Notes under the pieces: model-generated
What the model was told of the DNA's origin: nothing
Databases searched by the model: none
The model's input: the letters and a program-made list of their open reading frames with translations, nothing else
Source of the DNA: Dendrolimus kikuchii
Lineage: Eukaryota > Arthropoda > Insecta > Lepidoptera > Lasiocampidae
NCBI GenBank assembly: GCA_019925095.2
Contig: CM034390.1
Location: 3,273,501 to 3,337,500, forward strand
Direction of reading: 5' to 3'
Length of the DNA: 64,000 bases
Program-made: the position numbers and the translations under genes
In this document: piece by piece, positions 7,230-62,120 of the stretch
How the letters are laid out: each line of letters opens with the position of its first letter
How positions within the stretch are numbered: the stretch's first letter is position 1

Positions 7230-7345
7230 TAGATTACCGGGCGCAGCAAACGTTGTCCTGAAGAAACAAAAATTTAGAACTCGATTACAGCGTTACCTAC
7301 CAGGTTCAATTGTAAATCATCCCGGGTCCCATTCAAACACAGAAA
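7230..7345 (-). mobile_element. Helitron 3' end fragment
   Basis: GCAAACGTTGTCCTG followed by AGAACTCGATTACAGC and TACCTACCAGGTTC matches the 3' end of the Helitron at 27940-28631, diverged. Confidence 0.5.
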
Positions 7346-7389
7346 AAGTTCCGTTCTGTAGCATAAACACGAACAGAAGAATTATTTGT

Positions 7390-7615
7390 ATGTCTCAGAG
7401 ACCACCGGCCATAAAATTGGCCCCGACTTTTGCGAGGGCTTACGTGGGGCCGTAGGAAGGCCAACACGTAAAGGCCGGTTGACAAATTCAATGCAAATGT
7501 GGCGTGACACTGACCAGCGTCCATCCCAGTCTACACCATATAAAAATGCACCCAATGACAAGCCCCGGTCAGTGTAGGACTGTTGAGAGAAAGACTGGGA
7601 AGGATAAAGATAAAT
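7390..7615 (+). mobile_element. LINE-like repeat H, 3' fragment
   Basis: It shares ACCGGCCATAAAATTGGC-like sequence, a GGAAGGCCAACACGTAAAGG block and a GTGTAGGACT block with the minus-strand copy at 62370-62950. It is noncoding in this copy and its family is not identified. Confidence 0.5.
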
Positions 7616-15721: not shown

Positions 15722-15945
15722 TTGATAAATTAGATTAGGCTCCCATAGAGTAAATAATAACCATAAACAAAATTAAAATTAACAAGTTGGCGGTAGGCTA
15801 AATAAAACTTTAACAATACTCGTTGACACTTGACATCTTCGTCTTCCGTGATCACGGCCACTGAAAAGTGGCCGAAACGTCGAAAAAACTAAAATCAAAT
15901 AAAATTACCGCGCTTAAAACCGTTAAAACGTAGTTTTATTAAATC
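15722..15945 (+). mobile_element. Penelope-like element, 3' terminal fragment (copy C)
   Basis: It has GGCTCCCATAGAGTAAATAA, the hairpin GGCCACTGAAAAGTGGCC followed by GAAACGTCG, and the end CCGTTAAAACGTAGTTTTAT. It is noncoding. Confidence 0.7.
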
Positions 15946-16359: not shown

Positions 16360-16370
16360 ATTGATATCTT

Positions 16371-16634
16371 GAAAGAATGACTAAACAGATATATAATGCA
16401 AAAGTGGATGGATGCAGAAGTCGTGGAAGGCCACGACACACCTTCCGTGATCAAATTGATCGTGTACTAGCAGAAGGTGATGTCAGGAGCCTTAAGAACA
16501 GACGAGCGTGCATGACAAGAGTTATGAATGTCAAAGAAGCAAGTGAGGTGTGTAAGAATAAGCCTAAATGGCGCTCTGTTGTTCGTGCCTACCCCGCAAG
16601 GAAACTGGCGTGAAGTTATGTATGTATGTATGTG
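16371..16634 (+). mobile_element. (ATGT)n-tailed LINE, founder copy A of the satellite
   Basis: It begins GAAAGAATGACTAAACAG and ends in (ATGT)n. The target duplication is ATTGATATCTT (16360-16370) against ATTGATTTCTT (16635-16645), one mismatch. The last 129 bp (16506-16634) form the first part of the tandem unit that follows. Confidence 0.8.
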
Positions 16635-19600
16635 ATTGATTTCTTTATAGTTACGATTTTTGTAATATATCACGCATATGTCGTAAGTAAATTTTGTCAA
16701 TTTATTCCTTCGAAATTGTGGCAATACTGTGTGTGATGATTACTTGTAAAAACTTATGACGTCATAAGATTGAACGCTCATACAAAGTCTATGAGGCAGT
16801 GACGTTCGTAAGATTATAAGAAGTCTGTTATTTAATTTCTTGCGTGCATGACAAGAGCTATGAATGTCAAAGAAGCGAGTGAGGTGTGTAAGAATAAGCC
16901 TGAATGGCGCTCTGTTGTTCGTGCCTACCCCGCAAGGGAACTGGCGTGAAGTTATGTATGTATGTATGTATGTGATTGATTTCTTTATAGTTAAGATTTT
17001 TGTAATATATCACGCATATGTCGTAAGTAAATTTTGTCAATTTATTCCTTCGAAATTGTGGCAATACTGTGTGTGATGATTACTTGTAAAAACTTATGAC
17101 GTCATAAGATTGAACGCTCATACAAAGTCTATGAGGCAGTGACGTTCGTAAGATTATAAGAAGTCTGTTATTTAATTTCTTGCGTGCATGACAAGAGCTA
17201 TGAATGTCAAAGAAGCGAGTGAGGTGTGTAAGAATAAGCCTGAATGGCGCTCTGTTGTTCGTGCCTACCCCGCAAGGAAACTGGCGTGAAGTTATGTATG
17301 TATGTATGTGATTGATTTCTTTATAGTTAAGATTTTTGTAATATATCACGCATATGTCGTAAGTAAATTTTGTCAATTTATTCCTTCGAAATTGTGGCAA
17401 TACTGTGTGTGATGATTACTTGTAAAAACTTATGACGTCATAAGATTGAACGCTCATACAAAGTCTATGAGGCAGTGACGTTCGTAAGATTATAAGAAGT
17501 CTGTTATTTAATTTCTTGCGTGCATGACAAGAGCTATGAATGTCAAAGAAGCGAGTGAGGTGTGTAAGAATAAGCCTGAATGGCGCTCTGTTGTTCGTGC
17601 CTACCCCGCAAGGAAACTGGCGTGAAGTTATGTATGTATGTATGTGATTGATTTCTTTATAGTTAAGATTTTTGTAATATATCACGCATATGTCGTAAGT
17701 AAATTTTGTCAATTTATTCCTTCGAAATTGTGGCAATACTGTGTGTGATGATTACTTGTAAAAACTTATGACGTCATAAGATTGAACGCTCATACAAAGT
17801 CTATGAGGCAGTGACGTTCGTAAGATTATAAGAAGTGTGTTATTTAATTTCTTGCGTGCATGACAAGAGCTATGAATGTCAAAGAAGCGAGTGAGGTGTG
17901 TAAGAATAAGCCTGAATGGCGCTCTGTTGTTCGTGCCTACCCCGCAAGGAAACTGGCGTGAAGTTATGTATGTATGTATGTGATTGATTTCTTTATAGTT
18001 AAGATTTTTGTAATATATCACGCATATGTCGTAAGTAAATTTTGTCAATTTATTCCTTCGAAATTGTGGCAATACTGTGTGTGATGATTACTTGTAAAAA
18101 CTTATGACGTCATAAGATTGAACGCTCATACAAAGTCTATGAGGCAGTGACGTTCGTAAGATTATAAGAAGTCTGTTATTTAATTTCTTGCGTGCATGAC
18201 AAGAGCTATGAATGTCAAAGAAGCGAGTGAGGTGTGTAAGAATAAGCCTAAATGGCGCTCTGTTGTTCGTGCCTACCCCGCAAGGAAACTGGCGTGAAGT
18301 TATGTATGTATGTATGTGATTGATTTCTTTATAGTTAAGATTTTTGTAATATATCACGCATATGTCGTAAGTAAATTTTGTCAATTTATTCCTTCGAAAT
18401 TGTGGCAATACTGTGTGTGATGATTACTTGTAAAAACTTATGACGTCATAAGATTGAACGCTCATACAAAGTCTATGAGGCAGTGACGTTCGTAAGATTA
18501 TAAGAAGTGTGTTATTTAATTTCTTGCGTGCATGACAAGAGCTATGAATGTCAAAGAAGCGAGTGAGGTGTGTAAGAATAAGCCTGAATGGCGCTCTGTT
18601 GTTCGTGCCTACCCCGCAAGGAAACTGGCGTGAAGTTATGTATGTATGTATGTATGTGATTGATTTCTTTATAGTTAAGATTTTTGTAATATATCACGCA
18701 TATGTCGTAAGTAAATTTTGTCAATTTATTCCTTCGAAATTGTGGCAATACTGTGTGTGATGATTACTTGTAAAAACTTATGACGTCATAAGATTGAACG
18801 CTCATACAAAGTCTATGAGGCAGTGACGTTCGTAAGATTATAAGAAGTCTGTTATTTAATTTCTTGCGTGCATGACAAGAGCTATGAATGTCAAAGAAGC
18901 GAGTGAGGTGTGTAAGAATAAGCCTGAATGGCGCTCTGTTGTTCGTGCCTACCCCGCAAGGAAACTGGCGTGAAGTTATGTATGTATGTATGTGATTGAT
19001 TTCTTTATAGTTAAGATTTTTGTAATATATCACGCATATGTCGTAAGTAAATTTTGTCAATTTATTCCTTCGAAATTGTGGCAATACTGTGTGTGATGAT
19101 TACTTGTAAAAACTTATGACGTCATAAGATTGAACGCTCATACAAAGTCTATGAGGCAGTGACGTTCGTAAGATTATAAGAAGTCTGTTATTTAATTTCT
19201 TGCGTGCATGACAAGAGCTATGAATGTCAAAGAAGCGAGTGAGGTGTGTAAGAATAAGCCTAAATGGCGCTCTGTTGTTCGTGCCTACCCCGCAAGGAAA
19301 CTGGCGTGAAGTTATGTATGTATGTATGTATGTGATTGATTTCTTTATAGTTAAGATTTTTGTAATATATCACGCATATGTCGTAAGTAAATTTTGTCAA
19401 TTTATTCCTTCGAAATTGTGGCAATACTGTGTGTGATGATTACTTGTAAAAACTTATGACGTCATAAGATTGAACGCTCATACAAAGTCTATGAGGCAGT
19501 GACGTTCGTAAGATTATAAGAAGTGTGTTATTTAATTTCTTGCGTGCATGACAAGAGCTATGAATGTCAAAGAAGCGAGTGAGGTGTGTAAGAATAAGCC

Positions 19601-20676
19601 TGAATGGCGCTCTGTTGTTCGTGCCTACCCCGCAAGGAAACTGGCGTGAAGTTATGTATGTATGTATGTGATTGATTTCTTTATAGTTAAGATTTTTGTA
19701 ATATATCACGCATATGTCGTAAGTAAATTTTGTCAATTTATTCCTTCGAAATTGTGGCAATACTGTGTGTGATGATTACTTGTAAAAACTTATGACGTCA
19801 TAAGATTGAACGCTCATACAAAGTCTATGAGGCAGTGACGTTCGTAAGATTATAAGAAGTCTGTTATTTAATTTCTTGCGTGCATGACAAGAGTTATGAA
19901 TGTCAAAGAAGCAAGTGAGGTGTGTAAGAATAAGCCTAAATGGCGCTCTGTTGTTCGTGCCTACCCCGCAAGGAAACTGGCGTGAAGTTATGTATGTATG
20001 TATGTATGTGATTGATTTCTTTATAGTTAAGATTTTTGTAATATATCACGCATATGTCGTAAGTAAATTTTGTCAATTTATTCCTTCGAAATTGTGGCAA
20101 TACTGTGTGTGATGATTACTTGTAAAAACTTATGACGTCATAAGATTGAACGCTCATACAAAGTCTATGAGGCAGTGACGTTCGTAAGATTATAAGAAGT
20201 CTGTTATTTAATTTCTTGCGTGCATGACAAGAGCTATGAATGTCAAAGAAGCGAGTGAGGTGTGTAAGAATAAGCCTGAATGGCGCTCTGTTGTTCGTGC
20301 CTACCCCGCAAGGAAACTGGCGTGAAGTTATGTATGTATGTATGTGATTGATTTCTTTATAGTTACGATTTTTGTAATATATCACGCATATGTCGTAAGT
20401 AAATTTTGTCAATTTATTCCTTCGAAATTGTGGCAATACTGTGTGTGATGATTACTTGTAAAAACTTATGACGTCATAAGATTGAACGCTCATACAAAGT
20501 CTATGAGGCAGTGACGTTCGTAAGATTATAAGAAGTCTGTTATTTAATTTCTTGCGTGCATGACAAGAGCTATGAATGTCAAAGAAGCGAGTGAGGTGTG
20601 TAAGAATAAGCCTGAATGGCGCTCTGTTGTTCGTGCCTACCCCGCAAGGGAACTGGCGTGAAGCTATGTATGCACG
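16506..20676 (+). repeat. Satellite of twelve 336/340-bp periods plus a final partial unit
   Basis: Units starting GCGTGCATGACAAGAG lie at 16506, 16842, 17182, 17518, 17854, 18190, 18526, 18866, 19202, 19542, 19878, 20218 and 20554. The spacings are eight of 336 and four of 340, differing by one ATGT of the microsatellite. Each unit is about 129 bp of LINE 3' end plus 207 bp of single-copy-like spacer. Units are nearly identical, with a few shared variants (GCCTAAATGG/GCCTGAATGG, AGTCTG/AGTGTG). The repeated 106-codon and 70-codon ORFs are repeat by-products, not genes. Confidence 0.95.
20554..20676 (+). mobile_element. (ATGT)n-tailed LINE, founder copy B at the satellite's right edge
   Basis: This 123-bp copy is 5'-truncated exactly at GCGTGCATG and is flanked by a perfect 13-bp duplication TATTTAATTTCTT (20541-20553, 20677-20689). 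Its tail is mutated (ATGTATGCACG). The junction TTTCTT|GCGTGC is also found at the start of units 2 to 13. Confidence 0.82.
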
Positions 20677-20850
20677 TATTTAATTTCTTTAAAGTCCCTT
20701 AAGAAAAATTTATTTGCAAAAGTTTATTATACAGTAAATGAATATGAGAAGGACAAAGACATGACTAATAATATTTTGTAACTAAACATAATTTTATTGT
20801 AATATTTTACATCATATATAGGTATATACATATTTTAATGTAAATTTTGT

Positions 20851-21540
20851 TATAAAACTACGTTTTAACGGTTTTAAGCACGGTAATTTTATTTGATTTT
20901 TATTATTCCGACGTTTCGGCCACTTCTCAGTGGCCTTGATCACGGAAGACAAAGATGTCAAGTGTCAACGAGTATTGTTAAAGTTTTATTTAGCCTACCG
21001 CCAACTTATTAATTTTAATTATTTAATTTTTAATTTTGTTTATGGTTATTATTTAATCTATGGGAGCCTAATCTAATTTACTACCGCTTCGCAACATGTT
21101 ATGGCTTGAAGAGAAGAAGCGGCGCAAGAAACTCTTCAGCAAACATGCCTAGCTCTAATAATTTTATATAATATTAAAATGGGTGGAAGGAAAAATAAAA
21201 GTAATTATCAGTCAAGTTGGTTTGTGTTCCGTTGTACGCAGAAAGAGCTCACAGTGTCTTGAGGTCTGGCAGCTGGTTTTTGCTGGGTTTGGGTCTTAAT
21301 AGTTTTGATAATTGGATCCCAAACAGGTGGTACTTGCCAACCATCTTCTCTATTGAAATTTGGGTGTTTTTTGATTTCAATAGCCTCACGCATCATTCTA
21401 GGTATGAAACGATTCTCTTTCGCGAGGATTTGTGGGTTATCGAATCTGATGTAGTGGTTGGGTTTATCCAGCGTGTGTTCACTAAAATAAAACGTAGTTT
21501 TATTATGTATACAAGTCGCGAAAACTTAAGAAAATATTAT
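20851..21540 (-). mobile_element. Penelope-like element, 3' part (copy B)
   Basis: The minus strand encodes the post-GIY-YIG tail, MMREAIEIKKHPNFNREDGW then VWDPIIKTIKTQTQQK, followed by the 3'UTR with the hairpin (AGTGGCC…) and the end AAAACGTAGTTTTAT. A second terminal sequence in plus orientation (AAAACGTAGTTTTATTATG … GTCGCGAAAACTTAAG) sits at 21487-21535, so the two ends are inverted. It is nearly identical to copy D at 52490. Confidence 0.8.
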
Positions 21541-22578: not shown

Positions 22579-22846
22579 GCATGATGAAAGAATGACTAAA
22601 CAGATATACAATGCAAAAGTGGGTGGATGCAGAAGTCGTGGAAGGCCACTACACACCTTCCATGATCAAATTGATCGTGTACTAGCGGAAGGTGATGTCA
22701 GGAGCCTTAAGAACAGACGAGTGTGCATGACAAGAGTTATGAATGTCAAAGAAGCAAGTGAGGTGTGTAAGAATGGGCCTAAATGGCGCTCTGTTGTTCG
22801 TGCCTACCCCGCAAGGAAACAGGCGTGAAGTTATGTATGTATGTTC
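22579..22846 (+). mobile_element. (ATGT)n-tailed LINE, 268-bp fragment
   Basis: It starts in MHDERMTKQIYNAKVGG and ends …ARKQA plus a short tail. TTTAGAAT at 22571-22578 and 22847-22854 is the likely duplication. Confidence 0.8.
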
Positions 22847-37955: not shown

Positions 37956-38225
37956 ACATACATACATACATAACTTCACGCCGGTTCCCTTGCGGGGTAG
38001 GCACGAACAACAGAGCGCCATTTAGGCTTATTCTTACACACCTCACTTGCTTCTTTCACATTCATAACTCTTGTCATGCACGCTCGTCTATTCTTAAGGC
38101 TCCTGACATCACCTTCTGCTAGTACACGATCAATTTGATCATGGAAGGTGTGTCGTGGCCTTCCACGACTTCTGCATCCATCCACTTTTGCATTCTATAT
38201 CTGTTTAGTCATTCTTTCATCATGC
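37956..38225 (-). mobile_element. (ATGT)n-tailed LINE, 270-bp fragment
   Basis: Perfect 13-bp duplication ATTGTGGGATAGT at 37943-37955 and 38226-38238. Confidence 0.88.
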
Positions 38226-52267: not shown

Positions 52268-52489
52268 TTAACATTATCCGACACAGCACTGATTTTCAGT
52301 GTTCACCTCCTTAACTACAAAAGTTACGCGACCCACGGTAAAAACAAGCAAAATTAAATTATAGTCAACGTGAAACGAATAATCTATACATATAATAAAA
52401 TTGTATAGGTCGAATTTCTGTACAATGAAAAAAAATGCTAAGGAGGGTTGACAAAAAAGGTTACATAAACAGTTGTTGCAATAAATTTA

Positions 52490-53252
52490 TTAATAAAACT
52501 ACGTTTTAACGGTTTTAAGCGCGGTAATTTTATTTGATTTTGGTTTTTCCGACGTTTCGGCCACTTTTCAGTGGCCGTGATCACGGAAGACAAAGATGTC
52601 AAGTGTCAACGAGTATTGTTAAAGTTTTATTTAGCCTACCGCCAACTTATTAATTTTAATTATTTAATTTTATTTTTAATTTTGTTTATGGTTATTATTT
52701 ACTCTATGGGAGCCTAATCTAATTTACTACCGCTTCGCAACATGTTATGGCTTGAAGAGAAGAAGCGGCGCAAGAAACTCTTCAGCAAACATGCCTAGCT
52801 CTAATAATTTTATATAATATTAAAATGGGTGGAAGGAAAAATAAAAGTAATTATCAGTCAAGTTGGTTTGTGTTCCGTTGTACGCAGAAAGAGCTCACAG
52901 TGTCTTGAGGTCTGGCAGCTGGTTTTTGCTGGGTTTGGGTCTTAATAGTTTTGATAATTGGATCCCAAACAGGTGGTACTTGCCAACCATCTTCTCTATT
53001 GAAATTTGGGTGTTTTTTGATTTCAATAGCCTCACGCATCATTCTAGGTATGAAACGATTCTCTTTCGCGAGGATTTGTGGGTTATCGAATCTCATGTAG
53101 TGGTTGGGTTTATCCAGCGTGTGTTCAGTGATCGCAGACTTCGTAGACCTTGTGTTTCATGTCAGCAATGTGTTCTTTTACTCGTGTTTTTATGCTCCTT
53201 TTTGTTTGCCCAATGTATGACAATCCACACTCACAATCAAGCTTGTAAACTC
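52490..53252 (-). mobile_element. Penelope-like element, 3' part (copy D)
   Basis: Minus strand encodes the end of the GIY-YIG nuclease (YKLDCECGLSYIGQTK, then KTRVKEHIADMK) and MRFDNPQILAKENRFIP, then MMREAIEIKKHPNFNREDGW; 3'UTR with the hairpin and ACGTAGTTTTATT end. The nuclease part and tail are joined with a deletion (at about 53130). Nearly identical to copy B. Confidence 0.82.
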
Positions 53253-60951: not shown

Positions 60952-61805
60952 CTTGTGTAGTTCATAAACGATGAGGAACCGGCTCCCTACATTGCACTAA
61001 AAAGAGAAGCGTTTCACATTACCAAACATTAATCGGACTATTAGTTCGCGACAGTCAGTGATCCGACACTTCCGACTTTCTTGTGTAGTTCATGAACGAT
61101 GTACTATTAGGAACCGGCTCCCTACATTGCACTGAAAAGAGAAACGTTTCACATTACCAAACGTTAATCGCTTTATTAGTTCACTTGGTCAGCGCGACAG
61201 TCAGTGATCCGACATTTCCGACTTTCTTGTGTAGTTCATGAACGATGTACTATTAGGAACCGGCTCCCTACATTGCACTGAAAAGAGAAATGTTTCACAT
61301 TACCAAACGTTAATCGCTCTATTAATTGACTTGGTGAGCGCGACAGTCAGTGATCCGACACTTCCGACTTTCTTGTGTAGTTCATGAACGATGTACTATT
61401 AGGAACCGGCTCCCTACATTGCACTGAAAAGAGAAACGTTTCACATTACCAAACGTTAATCGCTTTATTAGTTCACTTGGTCAGCGCGACAGTCAGTGAT
61501 CCGACATTTCCGACTTTCTTGTGTAGTTCATGAACGATGTACTATTAGGAACCGGCTCCCTACATTGCACTGAAAAGAGAAACGTTTCACATTACCAAAC
61601 GTTAATCTCTCTATTAGTTCACTTGGTCAGCGCGACAGTCAGTGATCCGACACTTCCGACTTTCTTGTGTAGTTCATGAACGATATACTATTAGGAACCG
61701 GCTCCCTACATGGCACTGAAAAGAGAAACGTTTCACATTACCAAACGTTAATCGCTCTATTAGTTCACTTGGTCAGCGTGACAGTCAGCGATCCGACACT
61801 TCCAC
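60952..61805. repeat. 146-bp satellite, six units
   Basis: CTTGTGTAGTTCATGAACGA starts at 60952 (diverged), 61080, 61226, 61372, 61518 and 61664; spacings 128, 146, 146, 146, 146. Each unit has GGAACCGGCTCCCTACATTG, AAACGTTTCACATTACC and CGACAGTCAGTGATCCGACA. Confidence 0.92.
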
Positions 61806-62120
61806 TTCGACACGACACTTCGGAAACAAATTTTCTCTGTTATTTATTATAGTCTGGGTGTCCGGAATCAGCCACAGAGTAGTCAGTTGTGTAAAGTATT
61901 TAAACTGGCCAAAAGAAGCATTTAAAAAAAATTACACTAATATTATAAGTAAGAAAGTTAATCTGCTTGTTTGTATGTCTATTGGAAAACCACATTACCG
62001 ATTTTGATAGACTTTGATATAAACTATATGTAGTCCACTACCTAGAGTGGACGTAGGATATTTTTCATCCCGAAAAATTGAATAGTTTTCGTGGGAAAAG
62101 CACAGGGAAAACTATAATAC
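61806..62120. other. Unassigned; Helitron-like phrases
   Basis: 61930-62110 has AAGTTAATCTGCTTGTTTG and ACCGATTTTGATAG, Helitron-interior style. No gene. Confidence 0.35.

What the first reader, a model, noticed from the sequence alone, without database searches (positions are those of the whole stretch)
16360..20689. A satellite born from two neighbouring insertions of the same LINE
The array's two edges keep target duplications of two separate insertions. Left copy A (16371-16634) has ATTGAT(A/T)TCTT on both sides. Right copy B (20554-20676), 5'-truncated at GCGTGCATG, has a perfect TATTTAATTTCTT on both sides. The repeat unit is exactly A's last 129 bp plus the 207-bp spacer up to B. Unequal exchange between A's tail and B (about 123 bp of homology, 207 bp apart) gives this unit and no other mechanism is needed. 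It is a clean record of how a LINE pair can start a satellite.
Basis: partly seen in the sequence, partly recalled or inferred. Interest (0 to 1): 0.85.

Follow-up and report, generated by a model that had tools for sequence, protein, structure and literature searches.

The report
Tandem array seeded by two LINEs
In a moth genome, two broken copies of the same jumping gene landed about 200 bases apart, and exchange between them seems to have multiplied the stretch between them into a twelve-fold tandem array whose repeat units are visible hybrids of the two copies.

Summary
A 336-bp unit (340 bp in 4 of 12) repeats at 16506-20679: 13 LINE tails, 12 spacers of 207 bp. Copy B has a perfect 13-bp target duplication; 0 of 156 control flank pairs reach that. 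Copy A has a 10/11 match flush with both LINE ends, weaker alone (6 of 156 controls score as high).

A and B differ at seven tail positions. Of 11 internal tails, 10 join B alleles on the 5' side to A alleles on the 3' side, one has only A alleles, and none shows the reverse order. That is the polarity of the duplication product of A x B exchange.

Among scored matches (40 of 178 candidates) the full spacer occurs only here in a 705-Mb genome, which matches the moth Dendrolimus kikuchii in size, scaffold count and two contig lengths.

Corrections: this is one 4.2-kb local array, not an abundant satellite. Four internal tail types are more than simple crossing-over usually gave in simulation (2-3% of arrays), so gene conversion or extra turnover is likely; rolling-circle or template-switch routes are not excluded. 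The mechanism is already proposed in print; this is an unusually legible example.

The parts
16360..16370 (+). left target duplication of LINE copy A (ATTGATATCTT)
16371..16634 (+). LINE copy A, 5'-truncated; its last 129 bp are the tail of unit 1
16635..16645 (+). right target duplication of A (ATTGATTTCTT), also the start of spacer 1
16635..16841 (+). spacer 1, 207 bp; ancestral-looking C at unit column 153; ends with B's left target duplication
16723..16839 (+). part of the spacer that matches an old dispersed element (E) elsewhere in the genome at 77-88%
16842..20553 (+). units 2-12: eleven internal tails (ten B5'/A3' hybrids, u11 with A alleles only) each followed by a spacer
20541..20553 (+). 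left target duplication of LINE copy B (TATTTAATTTCTT)
20554..20676 (+). LINE copy B, 5'-truncated at GCGTGCATG, tail of unit 13
20677..20689 (+). right target duplication of B (TATTTAATTTCTT)

Best explanation
Two separate target-primed insertions of one abundant, 5'-truncating LINE family landed in the same orientation about 207 bp apart: A (264 bp) and B (123 bp). Misaligned homologous exchange between A's 3' tail and B, over about 123 bp of homology, made A - spacer - [B5'/A3' hybrid] - spacer - B. The longer homology of the repeated unit then allowed further unequal exchange, and probably gene conversion, to reach 12 spacers and 13 tails. Shown: the array, both duplications (A's less firmly), the mosaic tails and their polarity, and restriction of the full spacer to this locus among scored matches. 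Inferred: that the exchange was unequal crossing-over rather than another homology-directed route, and the order of events.
For: Array and unit structure. B's 13-bp duplication exceeds all 156 mismatched-flank controls; A's is flush with both LINE ends. 8 of 11 other copies tested share 11-15 bp between their own flanks. A and B differ at tail columns 17, 36, 61, 97, 111, 120, 122. B's state is found in 0 of 12 other window copies at 17, 0 of 13 at 36, 1 of 13 at 61 and 0 of 13 at 111, 120 and 122; at 97 B has the common state and A's state is in 1 of 13. Of 11 internal tails B's state is present in 10 at 17, 10 at 36, 8 at 61, 1 at 97 and 0 at 111, 120 and 122; none goes from A back to B. In simulated unequal crossing-over, among arrays that kept both edges, 2907, 2870 and 2916 of 3000 had only B-to-A tails. 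Full-length spacer only here: 12 of 40 scored matches. Both edge spacers keep C at column 153 and all 10 inner ones have A, as expected if edges escape homogenisation.
Against: A's duplication is imperfect and its score is reached by 6 of 156 controls. Four distinct internal tail types (u2; the majority; u6 and u9; u11) are rare in the simulation: four or more types in 55, 89 and 75 of 3000 arrays that kept both edges and in 192 of 20000 arrays without that condition. The polarity is partly forced by the anatomy, since each internal tail begins at B's truncation point and ends at A's end. The two target sites share TTRATTTCTT; no clear common motif is seen in other copies, although c22.5 has TTCTTTAG in its 3' flank. 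No orthologous locus without the array could be examined. Copies of element E do not test B's empty site, and T copies support A's only weakly (76 of 2000 shuffles reach the score; 961 of 2000 beyond the duplicated bases).
Confidence: 0.85

Rival explanations
1. Same two insertions, but the array was amplified by an extrachromosomal circle (formed by A x B recombination, copied by rolling circle and put back) or by template switching during replication, not by unequal crossing-over.
For: An A x B circle or a B-to-A template switch would give the same B5'/A3' hybrids as those seen; internal units are 99.4% alike on average with no private new variant, as after a burst.
Against: One circle or one switch would give a single hybrid breakpoint; the tails show at least four switch intervals (before 17, 36-61, 61-97, 97-111), so later exchange or conversion is needed anyway.
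Confidence: 0.25
2. Only A was a LINE insertion. A non-homologous tandem duplication joined the spacer end to GCGTGCATG inside A, and a later deletion removed the last spacer, so that B only looks like an insertion.
For: It explains B's perfect duplication without a second insertion, since the last spacer's end would simply remain; A and B share a similar flanking motif.
Against: It needs a deletion ending both at the LINE 3' end and within about 13 bp of the spacer end. The duplication junction shows no microhomology. B has the common state at column 97 where A has a rare one, and B has five states seen in none of the other copies plus one seen in 1 of 13.
Confidence: 0.06
3. The array or its copy number is an assembly artefact.
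For: Units are nearly identical (99.4% mean); reads could not be checked.
Against: The assembly that matches this genome used Nanopore reads of 29.86 kb N50 plus HiFi reads (PMC8589036, passages), far longer than the 4.2-kb array; units carry a mosaic of shared variants.
Confidence: 0.03

Closest known systems
[quoted passage not shown]
   Same: Part of an element is duplicated by exchange between two copies, then expanded.
   Different: Here both founding copies, their target duplications and the intervals of exchange are still readable, and the unit includes 207 bp of spacer.
Transposable-element dimers by double insertion (McGurk and Barbash 2018, Drosophila; seen through passages of PMC12628747; the paper itself is not held)
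   Same: Two nearby insertions of one element as substrate for expansion; the review reports hobo expanded to 16 tandem copies.
   Different: There the insertions share a single site; here they lie 207 bp apart and only a truncated tail plus the spacer repeats.
Nonallelic homologous recombination between neighbouring TEs in Lepidoptera (PMC12308830, abstract and section list seen)
   Same: Exchange between nearby TE copies in moths and butterflies.
   Different: That study infers loss of the sequence between TEs genome-wide; this is the duplication counterpart at one locus.
Truncated RTE elements of Lepidoptera (PMC2887409, passages)
   Same: Fragments of the 3' end of the RT ORF with a short 3' UTR, a simple repeat and target duplications (6-12 bp stated there).
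   Different: Here the tail repeat is GTAT; the clade of this LINE was not tested by a tree.

Membership tests
Non-LTR retrotransposon (LINE) insertion, for A and B | Variable 5' truncation with a common 3' end | tested here: met
   13 other window copies compared: various 5' ends, common GTAT-type 3' end
Non-LTR retrotransposon (LINE) insertion, for A and B | Target-site duplication flush with the element | tested here: met
   B 13 of 13 bp; A 10 of 11 bp, moderate alone; 8 of 11 other copies tested 11-15 bp
Non-LTR retrotransposon (LINE) insertion, for A and B | Reverse transcriptase upstream of the tail | tested here: met
   Predicted protein P0002, named D. kikuchii by its source, joins RVT_1 (E 2.8e-13) to this tail; the 137-aa window fragment alone hits no Pfam model
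RTE clade | Placement of the reverse transcriptase in a tree | not tested
   Only resemblance: short 3' end with simple repeat and short duplications; likeness of the RT motifs is recalled, from no call
Array born by exchange between two TE copies | Internal units are hybrids of the two edge copies with one polarity | tested here: met
   10 of 11 internal tails B5'/A3', 1 of 11 with A alleles only, 0 reversed
Array born by exchange between two TE copies | Ancestral A-spacer-B state in a relative or individual | not testable with these tools
   The tool states that this genome has no relatives there
Satellite DNA | Head-to-tail tandem organisation | tested here: met
   12.4 copies
Satellite DNA | Abundance beyond one small locus | tested here: not met
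   Full spacer only in this array among 40 scored of 178 candidates; counts are lower bounds

The most novel reading that the evidence does not exclude
The locus is a readable birth record of a TE-pair-seeded array. Exchange or conversion switch points can be placed in intervals of 14-36 bp inside a 123-bp homology. This would show that two short truncated LINE tails 207 bp apart suffice, that A-type sequence kept entering later units, and that conversion accompanied growth. With this LINE at about one 3' end per 9-10 kb in the sample, the genome should hold thousands of possible seed pairs, so the rate at which pairs become arrays could be measured.
Probability: 0.4. Interest if true: 0.6.

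Novelty: new member of a known kind. Interest (0 to 1): 0.45.

Why it matters
Models of how transposable elements start satellites are mostly drawn as schemes. A locus where both founding insertions, their target duplications and the hybrid product survive lets the steps be checked base by base. The abundance of this LINE would make the frequency of array birth from close direct pairs measurable, with unexpanded pairs such as the one in L034 (direct, 408 bp apart, no array) as controls.

Tried and rejected
Empty-site test for B with other copies of element E: matches end at spacer position 206 or before in 20 of 20 fetched copies, and none continues into B's right flank in BLAST, so B is neither supported nor refuted by them. 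Empty-site test for A with element T: two other T tails read AGCAATTGATTT, but likeness beyond the duplicated bases is no better than shuffled sequence (961 of 2000). Spacer 24-mer in viral contigs: 0 matches. A shared target preference of the family as cause of the similar A and B sites: no clear motif in the flanks of the 13 other copies, though c22.5 has TTCTTTAG; unexplained. Literature: a six-term search on two insertions with an intervening sequence gave 0 papers; some searches gave reviews and related cases. From those listings, and the passages read, I saw no report of this locus; that does not show that none is in print.

Only 20 stretches of 10 kb were sampled.

Full report
What is there. 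The window carries a tandem array at 16506-20679 with period 336 bp and 12.4 copies. Eight units are 336 bp and four (u2, u7, u9, u11) are 340 bp, the difference being one more GTAT. Each unit is a LINE tail of about 129 bp plus a 207-bp spacer. Units 1-12 are 99.4% identical on average. Ten alignment columns vary: six substitution columns and the four columns of the GTAT indel. The only state seen in a single unit among 1-12 is G at column 97 in u2, which is also B's state, so no unit has a private new variant.

Where it is. The window is C4:3273501-3337500 of a 705,495,508-base genome in 49 contigs that the tool does not name. Contig lengths 29,261,876 (C4) and 24,274,896 (C14) equal the contig lengths listed for the D. 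kikuchii proteins P0043 and P0023. The published D. kikuchii assembly has 705.51 Mb in 49 scaffolds from Nanopore and HiFi reads (PMC8589036, passages read). I therefore take the organism to be Dendrolimus kikuchii, a lasiocampid moth.

The LINE. Fifteen other copies or pieces of the tail lie in the window, two of them cut by its ends; the other 13 were used for comparison. They are 5'-truncated at various points and end in a GTAT-type repeat. The C-terminal protein fragment has 79 relatives at E of 0.001 or less; those whose source name gives an organism are all moths. One predicted protein, named D. kikuchii, joins a reverse-transcriptase domain to this tail. The features resemble truncated RTE elements of Lepidoptera (PMC2887409, passages read), but the clade was not tested.

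Target duplications. One search compared the two flanks of A, B and 11 other copies (c12.1, c23.3 and the two edge pieces left out; some ends set by hand). Of the 11 others, 8 share an exact word of 11-15 bp; 0 of 156 mismatched flank pairs reach 11. B shares 13 bp exactly; 6 of 4000 random window pairs also reach 13. A shares 10 of 11; 6 of 156 mismatched and 55 of 4000 random pairs score as well. B's duplication is strong and A's moderate, with its position flush at both LINE ends as added support.

The hybrid tails. A and B differ at tail columns 17, 36, 61, 97, 111, 120 and 122; columns 127-129, where B is already in its target duplication, are left out. B's states occur in 0 of 12 (17), 0 of 13 (36), 1 of 13 (61) and 0 of 13 (111, 120, 122) other copies. 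At 97 B has the common state and A's is found in 1 of 13. Of the 11 internal tails, 10 carry B's state at 17 and 36, 8 at 61, 1 at 97 and none at 111, 120 or 122. Ten run from B to A, one (u11) has A's states throughout, and none goes from A back to B. Every internal unit begins at B's truncation point and ends at A's end. That is the form of the duplication product of exchange between A's tail and B; the deletion product would be the reverse. The anatomy alone forces a switch somewhere in the tail; what the alleles add is that the switch lies inside the LINE homology and involves two copies with separate histories.

How it grew. Switch points fall in at least four intervals: before column 17 (u11), 36-61 (u6, u9), 61-97 (seven tails), 97-111 (u2). 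Growth by unequal crossing-over from A-spacer-B was simulated. Without condition, both edges were kept in 5848 of 20000 arrays, all internal tails were B-to-A in 13959 of 20000, and four or more tail types appeared in 192 of 20000. Among arrays that kept both edges (3000 taken from 22525, 19148 and 32844 runs at three settings; runs that failed or lost an edge dropped), 2907, 2870 and 2916 had only B-to-A tails, while four or more types appeared in 55, 89 and 75. The polarity is thus expected, but the variety of tails and the all-A tail u11 suggest conversion or longer turnover. The two edge spacers keep C at column 153 where the ten inner ones have A, the usual sign that edges escape homogenisation. 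With a butterfly mutation rate of about 3e-9 per base per generation (recalled, from no call), no private mutation in about 4 kb would put the last homogenisation within a few hundred thousand generations; this is a rough bound.

The spacer. In this genome 40 of 178 candidates were scored: 12 full-length matches, all in this array, and 28 partial ones elsewhere, at 77-88% identity and at most 119 bp. The second half of the spacer is thus a remnant of an old dispersed element (E).

Empty sites. No relative is held. Copies of E do not test B's site. A lies at the tail of another element, T; two other T tails read AGCAATTGATTT, agreeing with A's right duplication, but the total score is reached by 76 of 2000 shuffles and likeness beyond the duplicated bases by 961 of 2000.

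How common seed pairs may be. In 20 sampled stretches (200 kb) there were 22 LINE 3' ends, 6 of them in the four stretches near the window. The closest direct pair, in L034, is 408 bp apart and has no array. Extrapolated, this is some 70,000 copies and thousands of close direct pairs, from a small sample.

Verdict. 'Satellite' is too large a word for one 4.2-kb array, and unequal crossing-over alone is not shown. The mechanism is already proposed (Wong and Choo; McGurk and Barbash; both known here through reviews). The locus is a legible new member of a known kind.

Noticed in passing
20554-20676: All six differences of B from the consensus of the 13 other window copies are A/T-to-G/C transitions; chance or GC-biased conversion.
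   Followed up: no
16360-16370, 16635-16650, 20541-20553, 20677-20694: The two target sites resemble each other (TTRATTTCTT, then TAWAG on the right); no clear common motif elsewhere, though c22.5 (3' flank after 22844) has TTCTTTAG.
   Followed up: partly
22579-22844, 37956-38225, 16371-16634: Two other LINE copies start at the same GCATGATGAAAG and A starts 7 bp further on: a preferred 5' end or microhomology joining.
   Followed up: no
61047-61807: Another tandem array, 146-bp unit, 5.2 copies, 96% matches.
   Followed up: no
L034:7257-8245: Direct pair of the same LINE 408 bp apart with no array; the copy at 7257-7472 sits at the tail of element T, as A does.
   Followed up: partly
15726-15942 and 20852-21080: Inverted copies of another repeat lie on both sides of the array (89%); the right one belongs to a stretch, 20841-21481, that matches 52482-53127 at 97.5%.
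   Followed up: no
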